Part shown: piece by piece, positions 1,549 to 9,214 of the stretch
How the letters are laid out: each line of letters opens with the position of its first letter
Position numbering within the stretch: the first letter of the stretch is position 1
Origin: Candidatus Desantisbacteria bacterium CG1_02_38_46
GTDB taxonomy: Bacteria; Desantisbacteria; UBA1551; UBA1559
Assembly: GCA_001871015.1 (NCBI GenBank)
Contig: MNUO01000024.1
Location: 1-10,773 of the forward strand
Direction of reading: 5' to 3'
DNA length: 10,773 nucleotides
Notes under the pieces: model-generated
Seen by the model: the letters and a program-made list of their open reading frames with translations, nothing else
Database searches by the model: none
What the model was told of the DNA's origin: nothing
Program-made: the position numbers and the translations under genes

Positions 1549-1905
1549 GATTTGGGACATTTATGGGACATTTGGGACATGTTTCGGACATTTATCGGAC
1601 ATCTCAGAAGATTATTCTAAAGGTGCGTGATTAGCCGATTGGGTCAAGAAGAAGGAAATAAACACTTCAATATTGGTGATTGTGGTGATTAGTTGGCGAT
1701 TCGGGCAATGGTCAGCAATGGGGTAAAAGAGATATTTAATCTTGCGCGATTTGCGTGATTATCCTAAGGGGACAAAGGAGATACAGAAGCATCAAACAGG
1801 ACATTTATGAAATATCTGGGACATAAGGAGTAAGGGTAGATCGGCTCATAAATGGCTCAATTGGCTCACGGTGGTATTGGCGTCTAATTCATTTTATGGT
1901 TAAAA
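1549..1905. repeat. Gene-free region of degenerate short words spaced mostly 9 or 11 nt apart
   Basis: No credible gene is present. GGACAT begins at 1555, 1566, 1575, 1586 and 1597 (spacings 11, 9, 11, 11) and again at 1799 and 1819. GATT occurs at 1629, 1637, 1678, 1687, 1698, 1748 and 1757. GGCTCA occurs at 1843, 1854 and 1863 (spacings 11 and 9). Three different words therefore share a similar spacing of about one helical turn. No tandem unit is exact over its whole length. Origin and function are unknown; slippage-derived degenerate repeats or a cluster of protein-binding sites are both possible. Confidence 0.5.
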
Positions 1906-2008: not shown

Positions 2009-2281
2009 ATGATTAAACGTAAAAGTAAATACTACGTTTACATACTTCAATGTAAAGATGGAACCTATTATACCGGGTATACAAATAATTTAGAGGAACG
2101 GATTAAGCTGCACAATAAGGGAGATGGGGCGAAGTATGTGAAGGGAAGGGGACCTGTGAAACTGGTGTATGCGAAAGAATACAGGTATTATAAAAATGCG
2201 CTGAATGCGGAAAAAGAAATAAAAAGTTATACAAGAAAAGAGAAGGAAGAGTTGATAGGGACATATGAAAAAAACAGATAA
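2009..2281 (+). CDS. Small GIY-YIG family endonuclease-like protein (UPF0213 / YhbQ type)
   Basis: The 90-residue protein is a single GIY-YIG domain. The first strand is YYVYILQC (8-15), the second motif is YYTGYT (20-25), the conserved arginine is R31 in NNLEERIKLHNKG, and the catalytic glutamate is E68 in ALNAEKEIKSY. It has the length of stand-alone bacterial GIY-YIG proteins of the UvrC/YhbQ-like superfamily, which are thought to nick or cleave DNA, though the cellular role of the short ones is unclear. The start is the first ATG after the promoter at 1906-1933; there is no recognisable Shine-Dalgarno upstream. The 3' end overlaps the miaB start by 17 bp, so the two genes are likely translationally coupled. 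Confidence 0.85.
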   Translation: MIKRKSKYYVYILQCKDGTYYTGYTNNLEERIKLHNKGDGAKYVKGRGPVKLVYAKEYRYYKNALNAEKEIKSYTRKEKEELIGTYEKNR

Positions 2282-3548
2282 CAATATAATTAACCCCCAG
2301 ATTTCTTCGAAATCTAAACGGGGGTTTGACATCCGAAAGTTTTACATAAAAACTTTCGGATGTCAAATGAATTCGTACGATTCACAGTGCATTGCGGGAC
2401 AGATGCTGGCTGAGGGATTTGAGCAGATTGACAATTCTAAATGTGCCATAAATCGCACCATTACAAATACAAAAAACGAGCAAGCTCGTTCACTACGTTG
2501 CGCAATGAAGCATACCACCATGGCAGAGGCGGATATAATACTTTTTAATACCTGCTCTGTGCGGGAGCATGCAGAACAGAGATTTTATACAAATCTGGGT
2601 GCAACATACAATTTAAAGGAAAAAAATCCAGAATTAATTGTCGGGGTATGCGGGTGCGTTGCAGAACAGGAAGGAGCAAAACTTCTTAACAGGTATCCAT
2701 GGGTTAAATTGATTGCAGGGCCTGGCAATATTTCTGAAATCGGAAATGCAGTTAAAAAGATAATTGAGAATAATTCACGAATTATATTGACGGGGAATTT
2801 TGATCCCCCTAGTTTCCCTGTTGGGAAACTGGACAGGGGGACAGGCGGGGGAGTAACCATCGCCAGAAAAAACAAAGATTCGGCTCTGGTTGCAATCATA
2901 AGGGGGTGCGATAATTTCTGTTCTTACTGCGTTGTGCCTTATTTGAGGGGTAGAGAGCAGTCCAGACCTATGGATGAAATTATTGAAGAGGTGAAGCAAA
3001 TTGCAAGAGATGGATATAAAGAAGTTATGTTGCTGGGACAGAATGTGTGCGCTTATAATGATTTTGCAAATCTCTTGAGAGAAATTAATGAGATTGAAGG
3101 GATAGAGAGAATAAGATTTATGACATCACATCCCAGGGATGTCGGTGAAGAGATGATTGACGCAGTTGCAAATCTGGATAGAGTTTGCAAGGAATTTCAT
3201 CTTCCAGTGCAGTCAGGTTCAAATAAAATTCTTAAGGCGATGAACAGGGGATATACAAAAGAATATTATTTGGATTTAATAAATTCAATTCGTGCGAAGG
3301 TGCCGGGTATCAGAATTACCACTGACATTATTGTAGGATTTCCCGGCGAAACCGAAGAGGATTTTCAGGATACTCTGGAGCTGGTTAGAAAAATTAAATT
3401 TGATGATGCATTTATGTTTAAATATTCTGACCGTCCCGGGACAAAAGCTAACAAAAAAGATGGAAAGATTCCACAAGAAATCAAAGAAAAAAGGCTTAAA
3501 ATTCTAATGGAAAAAATAAGGTCTTTACGCCCCCCTAGTTTTCTTTGA
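2265..3548 (+). CDS. miaB: MiaB, tRNA-2-methylthio-N6-dimethylallyladenosine synthase, with in-frame palindromic insertions and no TRAM domain
   Basis: MiaB is a radical SAM methylthiotransferase that adds the 2-methylthio group to i6A37 of tRNA. The N-terminal cluster cysteines are C33 (TFGCQMN), C97 (NTCSVRE) and C131 (GCVAEQ). The radical SAM motif is C215-x3-C219-x2-C222 (RGCDNFCSYC), followed by the MiaB-type signature YLRGREQSRP and by LLGQNV. Three stretches absent from normal MiaB are palindromic in DNA: residues about 10-26, about 55-86 and about 180-193. The protein ends at RLKILMEKIRSLRPPSFL, where the family normally continues into a TRAM domain of roughly 60 residues that helps bind tRNA; the stop TGA at 3546-3548 lies inside another palindrome. 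It may be functional but weakened, or a decaying gene. The ATG at 2265 is the only in-frame ATG before the first cysteine motif. Confidence 0.9.
   Translation: MKKTDNNIINPQISSKSKRGFDIRKFYIKTFGCQMNSYDSQCIAGQMLAEGFEQIDNSKCAINRTITNTKNEQARSLRCAMKHTTMAEADIILFNTCSVREHAEQRFYTNLGATYNLKEKNPELIVGVCGCVAEQEGAKLLNRYPWVKLIAGPGNISEIGNAVKKIIENNSRIILTGNFDPPSFPVGKLDRGTGGGVTIARKNKDSALVAIIRGCDNFCSYCVVPYLRGREQSRPMDEIIEEVKQIARDGYKEVMLLGQNVCAYNDFANLLREINEIEGIERIRFMTSHPRDVGEEMIDAVANLDRVCKEFHLPVQSGSNKILKAMNRGYTKEYYLDLINSIRAKVPGIRITTDIIVGFPGETEEDFQDTLELVRKIKFDDAFMFKYSDRPGTKANKKDGKIPQEIKEKRLKILMEKIRSLRPPSFL
2292..2326 (+). repeat. Palindromic element copy 1, in frame near the miaB start
   Basis: The outer stem AACCCCC (2292-2298) pairs with GGGGGTT (2320-2326). 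The inner stem AGATTTC (2299-2305) pairs with GAAATCT (2309-2315) around loop TTC. An unpaired AAAC (2316-2319) lies only on the 3' side. The same design (C-rich outer arm, AG..TTTC inner stem, 3' bulge) recurs at 2804, 3530 and 3610 in the same orientation. It encodes residues about 10-21 of MiaB, before the conserved domain. Confidence 0.85.
2325..2367 (+). repeat. 43-bp perfect hairpin over the MiaB TFGCQ codons
   Basis: A 19-nt left arm (2325-2343) is the exact reverse complement of the right arm (2349-2367), with the 5-nt spacer ACATA. The right arm carries the conserved codons for K29-T30-F31-G32-C33-Q34, so it is the native sequence; the left arm, read as FDIRKF, appears to be an inverted copy of it. 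It starts where palindromic element copy 1 ends. Confidence 0.9.
2438..2515 (+). repeat. In-frame palindromic insertion of a second type inside miaB
   Basis: Three inverted repeats lie in a row: GTGC (2443-2446) with GCAC (2455-2458), extendable with a bulge to AATG..CATT; AACGAGC (2475-2481) with GCTCGTT (2484-2490); and TTGCGCAA (2498-2505). The encoded residues, about 58-85, interrupt the family pattern in which a Gly-Phe/Tyr-rich helix is followed directly by EADIILFNTCSVRE. No stop codon is introduced. The exact borders are estimated. Confidence 0.65.
2804..2841 (+). repeat. Palindromic element copy 2, in frame in the miaB linker
   Basis: The outer stem TCCCCC (2804-2809) pairs with GGGGGA (2836-2841). 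The inner stem AGTTTCCC (2811-2818) pairs with GGGAAACT (2823-2830) around TGTT, and GGACA forms the 3' bulge. It encodes about residues 180-193 of MiaB, in the linker between the N-terminal domain and the radical SAM core, a place that would tolerate extra residues. Confidence 0.85.
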
Positions 3549-3563
3549 AAACTGACAGTGGGG
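3530..3563 (+). repeat. Palindromic element copy 3, supplying the miaB stop codon
   Basis: The C-run at 3530-3535 pairs with GGGG (3560-3563). The inner stem AGTTTTC (3537-3543) pairs with GAAAACT (3547-3553), and GACAGT is the 3' bulge. The loop and inner stem contain the TGA that ends miaB. The MiaB TRAM-coding region expected here is missing downstream. Confidence 0.8.
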
Positions 3564-3574
3564 TATCTACCGAT

Positions 3575-3607
3575 ACAGTTAGAGAAGCAGCAGGTCATAA
3601 AAAATAG
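3575..3607 (+). pseudogene. Possible relic of a duplicated flp 5' end
   Basis: One frame reads TVREAAGHKK then TAG. The genuine pilin gene begins MTKLRDAAGNQKR. At DNA level the two share AGTTA, GCAGCAGG and an A-run, and both are preceded by a palindromic element followed by ATCTAC. This suggests a tandem duplication of element plus gene start, with the first copy now decayed. The match is only about ten residues, so chance is possible. Confidence 0.35.
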
Positions 3608-3609
3608 AC

Positions 3610-3646
3610 ATCCCCACAGGTTTCTACGAAACCTAAACGTGGGGAT
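3610..3646 (+). repeat. Palindromic element copy 4, directly upstream of the flp Shine-Dalgarno
   Basis: The outer stem ATCCCCAC (3610-3617) pairs with GTGGGGAT (3639-3646). The inner stem AGGTTTC (3618-3624) pairs with GAAACCT (3628-3634) around TAC, and AAAC is the 3' bulge. It is the best-paired copy of the family. Its end is 4 nt before the strong Shine-Dalgarno GAGGAGG (3651-3657) of flp, so it could stabilise the mRNA or influence initiation. Confidence 0.85.
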
Positions 3647-3663
3647 CTACGAGGAGGTAGCAG

Positions 3664-3879
3664 ATGACGAAGTTAAGAGATGCAGCAGGGAATCAAAAAA
3701 GGCGTGCCCTGTTTAGGAGCCAATCAGGGCAGGGGATGACAGAGTATATTCTGATAGTCGTGCTCATAGCAGTTGCAGCGATAGTTGTTGTCAGGACGTT
3801 TGGTGATAAGATAAAGGGTTTGTTTCAGAAATCAGCAGAGACTATTGAATCCGGCACAAAGGGCGCATTCGGAAAGTGA
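3664..3879 (+). CDS. flp: Flp-type IVb pilin, major Tad pilus subunit
   Basis: The 71-residue protein has a basic leader, a prepilin peptidase site of the Flp type and one hydrophobic helix. Cleavage would follow G22 in SQSG-QGMTEY, which gives the family's G/xxxxEY pattern with Glu at +5 and Tyr at +6. The membrane/packing helix is YILIVVLIAVAAIVVV (28-43), followed by a short charged tail. The mature pilin would be 49 residues. A strong Shine-Dalgarno GAGGAGG sits 6 nt before the ATG. The stop overlaps the GTG of the next gene, and pseudopilin and CpaB genes follow, so this is the first gene of a Tad pilus cluster. The secretion ATPase, platform and prepilin peptidase genes are not in the window. 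Confidence 0.85.
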   Translation: MTKLRDAAGNQKRRALFRSQSGQGMTEYILIVVLIAVAAIVVVRTFGDKIKGLFQKSAETIESGTKGAFGK

Positions 3880-4368: not shown

Positions 4369-5160
4369 ATGATTGGACGATTGGCGGGTACCCACGGAGT
4401 GGGTGAGATAATTGGTAGAATAAATAAGACAAAAATAAAAGATGAAAACGGACAGGCGCTGCTCTTTACGGCAATCTTTTTAGTGATTTTTGTTGTATGT
4501 TTCCTCGGCGTATTCAATATTGGCCAATTGGTTACTCAAAAGATGAAAATGCAAAATGCCGTGGATGCCGCAGCCCAGACTGCTGCACTGTGGCAGGCAA
4601 GGGGTTTAAATTTAGAAGGGCATCTCAATGCTGCGCAGGAGGCTCTGTATTGGTCTTACGTAGGAGCACTTGCTATACTTCAACCGGAAATAGCTGCAAA
4701 GGTTTGGCAAACCTCATCCAAAATTACAAAAATTCAGGAGAAAATAGTTCAACAATTTCCTTATTATGCTATGGCTTCGGCTTTCAGTATAGCACGAAAA
4801 AACGGTGCAGATTTTGCTTATCCGGTAAATAAGCTAAATCCAAAAATTGCCTGCACATTAGGTATCAAAAAGACAAATAAAATTCCACTTATCAAAAATG
4901 CTTTTACCATTTATGCTCTGGATGTTCCTAAATACTGGGCACCGCAGGAGAAAAAGGGACCATATGTAACTTTTCTGGCTTACAAAAAAACTAAGGGGTT
5001 AATAGGGATTGAGTTATTTCAAATGAAAAATTCTGGAATGTGGACAATAGCATCAGCAAAACCAAAATATAAATATGAAATGGTGGCACCACAAGGAAAA
5101 GTTAAGGCAGGATGGCGTGCCATCCTGATGCCGGTGAGGTTACAAGGTGAAAAACGTTGA
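4369..5160 (+). CDS. Short TadG-like Tad pilus protein
   Basis: The 263-residue protein starts with a cytoplasmic leader, then a GQALLFTAIFLVIFVVCFLG helix (28-47) and the AVDAAAQTAAL segment (64-74) typical of the Tad/TadG N-terminal domain, where QNAVDAAA follows the membrane helix. Unlike TadE there is no Glu at +5 after G28, as expected for TadG. Classical TadG is much longer and ends in a von Willebrand A domain; none is seen here. The leader is longer than usual and is encoded partly by a palindrome at 4390-4404. Another palindrome at 5108-5127 lies near the C-terminus. A GGAGAGG Shine-Dalgarno precedes the ATG. It lies 4 bases after tadE. Confidence 0.7.
   Translation: MIGRLAGTHGVGEIIGRINKTKIKDENGQALLFTAIFLVIFVVCFLGVFNIGQLVTQKMKMQNAVDAAAQTAALWQARGLNLEGHLNAAQEALYWSYVGALAILQPEIAAKVWQTSSKITKIQEKIVQQFPYYAMASAFSIARKNGADFAYPVNKLNPKIACTLGIKKTNKIPLIKNAFTIYALDVPKYWAPQEKKGPYVTFLAYKKTKGLIGIELFQMKNSGMWTIASAKPKYKYEMVAPQGKVKAGWRAILMPVRLQGEKR
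4390..4404 (+). repeat. Short palindrome in the TadG-like leader
   Basis: ACCCAC (4390-4395) pairs with GTGGGT (4399-4404) around GGA. It encodes part of the residue 7-12 leader (THGVGE), ahead of the conserved membrane segment, where extra residues should be tolerated. It may be a small in-frame insertion like those in miaB, but its sequence is unrelated to them. Confidence 0.45.
5108..5127 (+). repeat. 20-bp palindrome near the tadG-like 3' end
   Basis: CAGGATGGC and GCCATCCTG form perfect 9-bp arms around GT. It encodes AGWRAILM-like residues close to the C-terminus. It is in frame and lies about 35 bp before the tandem array that follows the gene. Confidence 0.6.
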
Positions 5161-5162
5161 GA

Positions 5163-5387
5163 ATGCAGAGTAAACTCTGCACTTCCAGAGTGCCTACTTT
5201 CGGCCACTACCAATGTCGAGTAAACTCTGCCACTACAATGCAGAGTAAACTCTGCCACTACCAATGTCGAGTAAACTCGACCACTACAATGCAGAGTAAA
5301 CTCTGCCACTACAATGCAGAGTAAACTCGACCACTACAATGCAGAGTAAACTCTGCACTTCCAGAGTGCCTACTTTCGGCCACTACA
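5163..5387 (+). repeat. Tandem palindrome array of seven units ending at the next start codon
   Basis: Units begin at the AATG of 5162, 5212, 5237, 5263, 5288, 5313 and 5338. Most are 25-26 bp; the first and last are about 50 bp because they carry an extra GCACTTCCAGAGTGC hairpin plus CTACTTTCGGC. The core is a hairpin with loop TAAA and one of two arm types: GCAGAG..CTCTGC or GTCGAG..CTCGAC. Units 2 and 6 are mixed, with one arm of each type. Each unit ends CCACTAC followed by AATG, and the eighth AATG contains the ATG of the downstream pseudopilin gene. Total length from 5163 to 5387 is 225 bp. There are no unique spacers, so it is not a CRISPR. Confidence 0.9.
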
Positions 5388-5873
5388 ATGAAAAAGAAAG
5401 AAGAAGGGCAGTTTATTTTGGAATTGGCTTTAGTACTTCCGCTTCTCACGCTGATTCTCATCGGCATCTGGCAATTCGGGCGCATTTCTATTATAAAGCA
5501 GAGGGAAGTGATGGCTGTCCGTTATGGTGCCTGGTTAAAGGCACATACGAATATGAGCCATAAGAACATTGAGAACGAAATGAAGAAATTTTTATTAAAG
5601 GAGAAAGGAGAAAGGATATATGTAGAATTAGGGAGGAAACCTTCAGGAGGTTTTCTTAATATTTCTTCATCTTTTGACGGAATTTTGAATAGATTGACAG
5701 GAGTTTATGATGTTTCAATGAATTATAAATTAAAGACATTTGCTCCCCTGAGGGGTATTCTTCCATATTCAATGAATATTGAAGAAAATTGTGTGATGAC
5801 CCGTAATTCCTGGGCAGGAATAGGTGATACAATAAAGGAGATTTTTGGAATCAAGGAAGACGGTAACCGCTAA
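5388..5873 (+). CDS. Second TadE/TadF-like pseudopilin
   Basis: The 161-residue protein begins MKKKEEG-QFILELALVLPLLTLILIGIW, with a prepilin-type cut after G7, Glu at +5 and a hydrophobic helix at 9-29. The remainder is a soluble periplasmic domain with no recognised motif. Tad systems usually encode two processed pseudopilins, TadE and TadF, so this may be the TadF counterpart. The start codon is the last AATG of the tandem repeat array, and no Shine-Dalgarno exists in the repeat DNA before it. Translation may depend on leaderless-like initiation, on an A-rich start or on coupling to the previous gene. cpaB follows after 17 bp. Confidence 0.75.
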   Translation: MKKKEEGQFILELALVLPLLTLILIGIWQFGRISIIKQREVMAVRYGAWLKAHTNMSHKNIENEMKKFLLKEKGERIYVELGRKPSGGFLNISSSFDGILNRLTGVYDVSMNYKLKTFAPLRGILPYSMNIEENCVMTRNSWAGIGDTIKEIFGIKEDGNR

Positions 5874-8941: not shown

Positions 8942-9196
8942 GAGAAATCAGACCTGAAGGTCCGTAGCTCAGGACTTTAGTCCTGATATGTAACTCAGGG
9001 CTTTAGCCCTGAAGATTAGTGTCAGGACTTTAGTCCTGACCTGCTGTAACTCAGGACTTTAGTCCTGAGCTAATCAAACCTGAAGGTTTGAGTTACAACA
9101 TACAGATGTAACTCAGGGCTTTAGCCCTGAACTAATCAAACCTGAAGGTTTGAGTTACAACATACAGATGTAACTCAGGGCTTTAGCCCTGAAGAT
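8942..9196 (+). repeat. Array of eight or more hairpins (REP-like)
   Basis: Hairpins in order are GACC-TGAA-GGTC (8951-8962); TCAGGAC-TTTA-GTCCTGA at 8969-8986, 9022-9039 and 9051-9068; TCAGGGC-TTTA-GCCCTGA at 8995-9012, 9113-9130 and 9175-9192; and CAAACC-TGAA-GGTTTG at 9075-9090 and 9137-9152. A 62-bp unit is duplicated exactly (9070-9131 and 9132-9193). Inside each unit GAGTTACA and TGTAACTC form a further inverted repeat. There is no open reading frame and there are no T-tracts after the stems, so they are not typical terminators. Stem changes are compensatory (GGAC/GTCC against GGGC/GCCC). Confidence 0.9.
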
Positions 9197-9214
9197 TAGT
9201 GTATACTATATTAT
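9197..9214 (+). repeat. 18-bp direct repeat, right copy
   Basis: This is an exact second copy of 8924-8941, directly after the last hairpin. It brings a second TATACT (9202-9207), but the bases 17 bp upstream are hairpin DNA with no -35 likeness, so independent promoter activity is doubtful. Confidence 0.85.

What the first reader, a model, noticed from the sequence alone, without database searches (positions are those of the whole stretch)
2292..3646. A four-copy palindromic element family concentrated in and around miaB, two copies in frame
Copies at 2292-2326, 2804-2841, 3530-3563 and 3610-3646 share the same two-tier stem with a one-sided 3' bulge (AAAC or GACA) and the same orientation, while stem bases vary with compensation. 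Two are translated as extra peptide in an otherwise conserved enzyme. Protein-embedded palindromic elements are known from Rickettsia (RPE); this family seems structurally different, and I do not recognise it as described.
Basis: partly seen in the sequence, partly recalled or inferred. Interest (0 to 1): 0.75.

Follow-up and report, generated by a model that had tools for sequence, protein, structure and literature searches.

The report
Bulged palindromic repeats embedded in proteins
A roughly 38-base hairpin-forming DNA repeat has spread to about 45-60 places in each of two related bacterial genomes and sits in frame inside many conserved enzymes, adding extra peptide without breaking the reading frame; it resembles known REP and Rickettsia palindromic elements but is a family I could not find described.

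Summary
Four bulged palindromes lie at the stated coordinates; 20 shuffled windows contain none. A covariance model from them finds a dispersed family: about 47 copies in this 1.73-Mb genome and about 58 in the only other held genome of its phylum. Of 386 genomes scanned, only five match: these two, two of one genus of another phylum, and one with a single copy. Compensatory change is extreme (13 of 14 pairs; covariation 0.60 against 0.145 shuffled). A 3-4-nt one-sided bulge is nearly constant. About a quarter of the copies here are translated. Homologue alignments show in-frame inserts in MiaB, MiaA, alanine racemase, DppD, LeuC and an aminotransferase, in XerD of the sister genome, and in HypF in the other phylum. 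Sister orthologues lack the inserts, and I saw no gene broken out of frame. The kind is known, though: in-frame REPs and Rickettsia RPEs are published. Best reading: a REP-like, non-autonomous single-strand hairpin element, probably moved by a Y1 (HUH) transposase and tolerated in surface loops. It fails two REP criteria: the GTAG tag is a minority feature, and no transposase gene is flanked by it. The mobilising enzyme is inferred.

The parts
2265..3548 (+). miaB (tRNA methylthiotransferase), 427 aa, UPF0004 + radical SAM, no TRAM domain; host gene of three copies
   Evidence: Pfam UPF0004 and Radical_SAM; aligned to solved MiaB 7mjv and to five homologues
2292..2326 (+). element copy 1: AACCCCC-AGATTTC-TTC-GAAATCT-[AAAC]-GGGGGTT; encodes residues 10-21, an N-terminal extension that must be translated because no ATG/GTG/TTG lies in frame between it and the conserved KTFGCQMN motif
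   Evidence: absent from all five compared homologues
2804..2841 (+). element copy 2, in frame, residues 180-193 in the linker between UPF0004 and radical SAM domains
   Evidence: predicted disordered (residues 178-202, pLDDT<50)
3530..3563 (+). element copy 3 (one mismatch in outer stem); gives miaB its last six codons and its TGA stop
   Evidence: its reverse complement carries GTAG just before the stem
3610..3646 (+). element copy 4, intergenic between miaB and the Flp pilin gene; reverse complement starts CGTAGATCCCC
   Evidence: near-identical copy in the sister genome (L073:406-445)
2432..2525 (+). a further in-frame insert in MiaB (residues ~57-84), not a member of this family; contains GTAGTGAACGAGCTTGCTCGTT on the minus strand, REP-like
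   Evidence: absent from homologues; single copy in held loci
3664..3879 (+). Flp pilin gene downstream of copy 4
   Evidence: Pfam Flp_Fap

Best explanation
The four copies belong to a dispersed family of REP-like, non-autonomous mobile palindromes. Each is a ~36-41 nt sequence that, as a single strand, forms a basal C/G stem, a 3-4 nt bulge on one side and a second stem with a small loop. Many carry a short unpaired tag 5' of the foot on the bulge side (GTAG in this genome, TAAAG or TAAGG in its relative). By analogy with REPs, the folded single strand is the substrate of a Y1 (HUH) transposase acting in trans, which nicks and reinserts it without target duplication. Copies landing in genes survive when they stay in phase and fall in surface loops, linkers or protein ends, where the peptide is simply translated and tolerated. 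SHOWN: the family, its covariation, the one-sided bulge and tag, dispersal, in-frame lineage-specific inserts in conserved proteins, and Y1 transposase genes in both main host genomes. INFERRED: mobility itself, its enzyme, and that the decorated proteins are made and work.
For: Covariance model R1 from the four copies gives 40 matches at E<=1 (36 distinct places) in the own genome and 38 in the sister genome, against one weak hit in 57 control genomes. R2 (42 sequences): 97.1% of cells paired, 13 of 14 pairs changed on both sides, covariation 0.598 versus 0.145 +/- 0.015 shuffled and <=0.092 slid. In an unforced parse 78 of 82 copies have a 5' bulge of 3-7 nt (66 of them 3-4) and 75 have none on the other side. 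Tags on one side only: GTAG 11/47 here (expected 1.0; other side 2), TAAAG 14/46 and TAAGG 6/46 in the sister genome (expected 0.6 and 0.4; other side 0 and 0). In-frame inserts shown against homologues: Alr, DppD, LeuC, MiaB, MiaA, aminotransferase, XerD of the sister genome, absent from the G000 XerD, HypF in another phylum; N-terminal extension of MnmE. No gene split out of frame by a copy was seen. Y1_Tnp genes: 3 here, 10 in the sister genome. Predicted MiaB disorder falls on residues 1-21, 58-84, 178-202 and 424-427, the insert positions.
Against: No Y1 transposase gene among 17 loci in three genomes is flanked on both sides by the family. One copy lies in the leader of a sister-genome gene that has its own, different terminal repeats. 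G251 holds the family but no Y1_Tnp match. Most copies lack GTAG. Target sites could not be compared base by base because relatives are too diverged. The low pLDDT of inserts is partly expected from a five-sequence alignment without them.
Confidence: 0.62

Rival explanations
1. A functional RNA element: the hairpins are selected as mRNA structures (stability, processing or coupling of neighbouring genes) and some happen to lie in coding regions.
For: Strong compensatory change; several intergenic copies sit between co-directional genes; copy 4 and the copy in L022 abut the ribosome-binding sequence CTACGAGGAGG.
Against: Inside genes the copies occur in both orientations relative to the gene, so the mRNA carries either strand. 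No shared regulon. No T-tract, so not terminators. Positions are not conserved between sister genomes. Compensation is also expected for a single-strand DNA hairpin substrate.
Confidence: 0.12
2. Translationally bypassed or RNA-removed inserts: ribosomes skip the hairpin (as with mitochondrial byp elements, from memory), so the peptide is never made.
For: Hairpins in essential, conserved genes; copies 1 and 2 in one enzyme.
Against: All gene-internal inserts found keep the reading frame, and no out-of-frame disruption was seen; skipping would not need phase. In this genome 38% of element cores are open in all six frames against 8% for shuffles.
Confidence: 0.04
3. A classical MITE: short derivative of a DDE-transposase insertion sequence moved through terminal inverted repeats with target duplication.
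For: Palindromic ends, dispersed copies, non-coding.
Against: Far shorter than the 70-300 bp MITEs; the conserved feature is an asymmetric bulge and a one-sided tag rather than two equal ends.
Confidence: 0.08
4. Local by-products of replication (template switching at palindromes) without true mobility; miaB is a decaying gene collecting hairpins.
For: Four copies within 1.35 kb; a perfect 19-bp palindrome next to copy 1 (2325-2367) looks like template switching.
Against: The same sequence family is dispersed over both genomes and occurs in another phylum and in phage contigs, which local switching cannot give. MiaB keeps every conserved cysteine and the compared motifs.
Confidence: 0.06

Closest known systems
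Intragenic GTAG- and CGTC-tagged REPs (Di Nocera et al. 2013, PMC3733652)
   Same: Short dispersed palindromes, one-sided unpaired tag, compensatory sub-families, in-frame copies inside many conserved proteins, copies at protein ends supplying stops.
   Different: GTAG is conserved in >90% of members of most families there, but in about a quarter here and about a tenth in the sister genome, which mostly uses TAAAG/TAAGG; a 3-4 nt one-sided bulge in nearly every copy is not described there.
Long 'hairpin-bulge-hairpin' REPs of TnpA-REP subclass 2.2, incl. E. coli REP (PMC6006769, PMC8266576)
   Same: Basal stem, bulge, second stem, small loop; bulge and 5' tag are the transposase recognition features in E. 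coli.
   Different: No REPtron was found for this family.
Rickettsia palindromic elements (RPE)
   Same: Palindromes translated in frame inside functional proteins, lineage-specific.
   Different: No bulged C-rich/G-rich two-tier hairpin is described for RPEs in the papers read; RPE sequences themselves were not compared here.
IS200/IS605 subterminal hairpins
   Same: The sister genome's own IS200-type element (L088) has CCCCGCGGCTTGCCGCGGGG hairpins at both ends, broadly similar in composition.
   Different: Those hairpins are perfect, without bulge; R2 scores them only 9-14 bits.

Membership tests
REP (RAYT-associated repetitive extragenic palindrome) | Short (about 20-65 nt) palindrome in many dispersed copies per genome | tested here: met
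   About 47 and 58 copies of 36-41 nt
REP (RAYT-associated repetitive extragenic palindrome) | GTAG/GTGG guide tetranucleotide 5' of the hairpin foot in most copies | tested here: not met
   GTAG in 11/47 and 5/46 copies: enriched about 10-fold and 7-fold, one-sided, but a minority; TAARG tag in 20/46 of the sister genome
REP (RAYT-associated repetitive extragenic palindrome) | A Y1 transposase gene flanked by members (REPtron) | tested here: not met
   17 Y1_Tnp loci in three genomes; none flanked on both sides, one has a single adjacent copy
REP (RAYT-associated repetitive extragenic palindrome) | Single-strand hairpin bound and cut by the cognate TnpA-REP | not testable with these tools
   Needs purified protein
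Protein-embedded palindromic elements (RPE type, as a phenomenon) | In-frame insertion in conserved protein genes, absent from orthologues | tested here: met
   Alr, DppD, LeuC, MiaB, MiaA, aminotransferase, XerD, HypF
Rickettsia RPE families (RPE-1 to RPE-8) | Sequence homology to a described RPE family | not tested
MITE | 70-300 bp with terminal inverted repeats of 15-30 bp | tested here: not met
   Whole unit is 36-41 nt with one bulged hairpin
MITE | Target-site duplication | not testable with these tools
   Nearest relative too diverged for exact empty sites
Intrinsic terminator | G+C hairpin followed by a T run | tested here: not met
   No T run after the hairpins in the alignment of copies; many lie inside genes
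Any curated RNA family (Rfam 15) | Match to a covariance model | tested here: not met
   No match in 2265-3648 at E<=1

The most novel reading that the evidence does not exclude
A single, previously undescribed family of bulge-defined hairpin elements has spread across at least two bacterial phyla, possibly carried by phages, and uses protein genes as a regular habitat. Its recognition would depend on the asymmetric bulge rather than on a fixed GTAG tag, the tag being free to change between lineages (GTAG to TAAAG), and it would be moved by an enzyme not yet linked to REPs.
Probability: 0.25. Interest if true: 0.7.

Novelty: new variant of a known kind. Interest (0 to 1): 0.5.

Why it matters
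It adds an uncultured lineage, and apparently a second phylum, to the short list of bacteria in which palindromic repeats routinely write new peptide segments into housekeeping enzymes. It also supplies a family with enough copies and covariation to test how such elements are recognised. Both enzymes of the ms2i6A tRNA-modification pathway (MiaA and MiaB) carry it, which offers natural insertion mutants of well-studied enzymes.

Tried and rejected
Intrinsic terminators: no T tract. Rfam: nothing. Chance hairpins: rejected by shuffles and by 57 control genomes. 'Phylum-restricted' was my first conclusion from R1; R2 over 386 genomes and a pattern scan of viral contigs showed a second phylum and two phage contigs, so I dropped it. 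REPtron hypothesis: searched 17 Y1_Tnp loci and did not find one. A +1-frame reading downstream of copy 3 as a displaced TRAM domain: rejected, it is only the pilin gene read out of frame, and the sister MiaB also lacks TRAM. The 2432-2525 insert as a member of this family: rejected, different sequence. A second viral-contig pattern (the GTTTAG sub-family) found nothing.

Full report
Observation. The four palindromes are present exactly as described. A strict scan for that architecture in the window returns the three perfect copies only, and none in 20 dinucleotide shuffles; copy 3 has one outer mismatch. Copies 1 and 2 are fully in frame in miaB, copy 3 provides its last six codons and stop, copy 4 is intergenic.

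Is it a family? A covariance model from the four copies (R1) finds 36 distinct places (40 matches at E<=1, four of them the opposite strand of another) in the window's own 1.73-Mb, 88% complete genome G000, and 38 at E<=0.01 in G001, the only other held genome of the phylum (same order, another family). Of 57 other genomes only one had a match, a weak terminator-like one. A broader model (R2, 42 sequences) raises this to about 47 and about 58 distinct copies. I read 47 copies in G000 and 46 in G001 with their flanks.

Structure. On the alignment of 42 copies 97.1% of pair cells are standard pairs, 13 of 14 pairs show changes on both sides, and the covariation score is 0.598, against 0.145 +/- 0.015 for shuffles and at most 0.092 for slid structures. 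The alignment was fitted to the structure, so I also parsed all 82 short copies freely. 78 have a bulge of 3-7 nt on one side (66 of them 3-4 nt) and 75 have none on the other. In the G000 TTGCTTTC sub-family the bulge and loop are themselves complementary, so the inner hairpin can form in two registers, which is why both strands score. Several G000 copies carry other small palindromes inserted in the loop (L019, L106, L107, L110, L113, L116).

Tag. Turned so that the bulge is on the 5' side, copies carry short tags just before the foot: GTAG in 11 of 47 in G000 (expected 1.0; 2 on the other side), TAAAG in 14 and TAAGG in 6 of 46 in G001 (expected 0.6 and 0.4; none on the other side), and GTAG in 5 of 46 in G001. 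Copies 3 and 4 of the window have GTAG. A G001 copy (L073) matches copy 4 almost base for base, tag included. A one-sided guide-like tag beside an imperfect hairpin is the layout of REPs. In E. coli the transposase recognises both the GTAG and the bulge (PMC8266576), and long hairpin-bulge-hairpin REPs are a recognised class (PMC6006769).

Coding context. Homologue alignments place copies in frame inside conserved proteins of G000: alanine racemase (about 22 extra residues between the two matched segments), DppD-type ATPase (about 28), LeuC/homoaconitase (about 31; the 71%-identical G001 orthologue lacks them), MiaA, an aminotransferase and MiaB. Further copies lie in a UvrD-like helicase, a metallophosphoesterase, an M23 peptidase behind its signal peptide, the N-terminus of MnmE (no in-frame ATG/GTG/TTG after the element) and the C-terminus of an epimerase. 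That is 13 of 47 copies translated wholly or partly. In G001, XerD has a 29-residue insert holding a copy, absent from the G000 XerD in L040. Copies occur in both orientations relative to the gene and in several reading frames. I looked for genes broken by out-of-frame copies and found none; flanking same-strand ORFs were separate genes. Detection of broken genes was by eye on ORF pairs, so a few may be missed. Cores are open in all six frames in 38% of G000 copies against 8% of shuffles.

MiaB. Against five homologues the window's MiaB has the copy-1 extension, a 28-residue insert unrelated to the family, and the copy-2 expansion; all conserved cysteines and motifs are intact. A shallow AlphaFold model (five sequences, mean pLDDT 71) is unconfident at residues 1-21, 58-84, 178-202 and 424-427, i.e. 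at the inserts (and also at 216-229); this is consistent with loops but weak, because homologues lack those residues. G001 MiaB has its own different inserts (DSRASCVVRRASKS; NPPHLNPLPPV at the copy-2 site), so the protein is a repeated target in this order.

Wider distribution. R2 over 386 genomes finds the family in only five: G000, G001, two members of one genus in another phylum (G114, G251) and one copy in G367 (strict filters, so weak copies are missed). In G251 a copy lies in HypF with a clean 16-residue insert, others in Lnt and a NuoL-like protein. Two IMG/VR contigs carry strong copies (50-55 bits) between phage genes.

Mechanism. Y1 transposase genes exist in G000 (3, one with an internal stop and one cut by a contig end), G001 (10) and G114 (4), but not detectably in G251. 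None is flanked by the family on both sides. One G001 gene has a copy in its leader, inside its own unrelated terminal repeats. Thus 'works like a REP' is well supported by architecture, tag asymmetry and dispersal; 'is a REP of a known RAYT' fails two tests. I put the REP-like mobile-element reading at 0.62; the specific enzyme is inferred.

Known or new. In-frame palindromes are published for Rickettsia, Opitutus and others (PMC3733652). None of the papers read describes this bulged family, and it is not in Rfam. Hence: new variant of a known kind.

Noticed in passing
window 2325-2367: A perfect 19-bp inverted repeat (5-nt loop) spans the MiaB start: the conserved KTFGCQ coding sequence is mirrored directly downstream of copy 1, looking like a template-switch event at the insertion site.
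   Followed up: partly
window 2432-2525: A separate 28-residue in-frame insert in MiaB with a GTAG-tagged hairpin (GTAGTGAACGAGCTTGCTCGTT, minus strand), absent from all homologues compared; only this copy in the held loci.
   Followed up: partly
window 5160-5390: Array of GTAG-tagged palindromes (GTAGTGGCAGAGTTTACTCTGC and relatives), also found at many other G000 loci and in frame inside LeuC and DppD next to the bulged element.
   Followed up: partly
window 8950-9200: Array of TCAGGACTTTAGTCCTGA / TCAAACCTGAAGGTTTGA palindromes. In the sister genome the same palindromes flank Y1 transposase genes (L094, L095), i.e. a REPtron-like arrangement for that family.
   Followed up: partly
window 2265-3548 and L043:1459-2610: MiaB of both members of this phylum lacks the C-terminal TRAM domain present in the other homologues aligned; it is the only close MiaB match in the own genome.
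   Followed up: partly
L112:1501-1541 and window 2292-3563: MiaA and MiaB, consecutive enzymes of ms2i6A tRNA modification, both carry in-frame copies of the element.
   Followed up: yes
window 3630-3660 and L022 (minus strand): Two copies end in CTACGAGGAGG, so that the element's tag joins directly onto the ribosome-binding sequence of the next gene.
   Followed up: no
L144 (G001 C23): A second aconitase-family protein of the sister genome has its own unrelated insert at the same loop where G000 LeuC carries the element: apparent hot spot for tolerated inserts.
   Followed up: no
L146 and L147 (IMG/VR contigs): Two phage contigs carry copies of the element between genes, one with an extra hairpin in its loop.
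   Followed up: partly
window 1555-1825: Degenerate direct repeats of GGACATTT(AT)GGGACATTT downstream of the DUF4062/ATPase gene.
   Followed up: no
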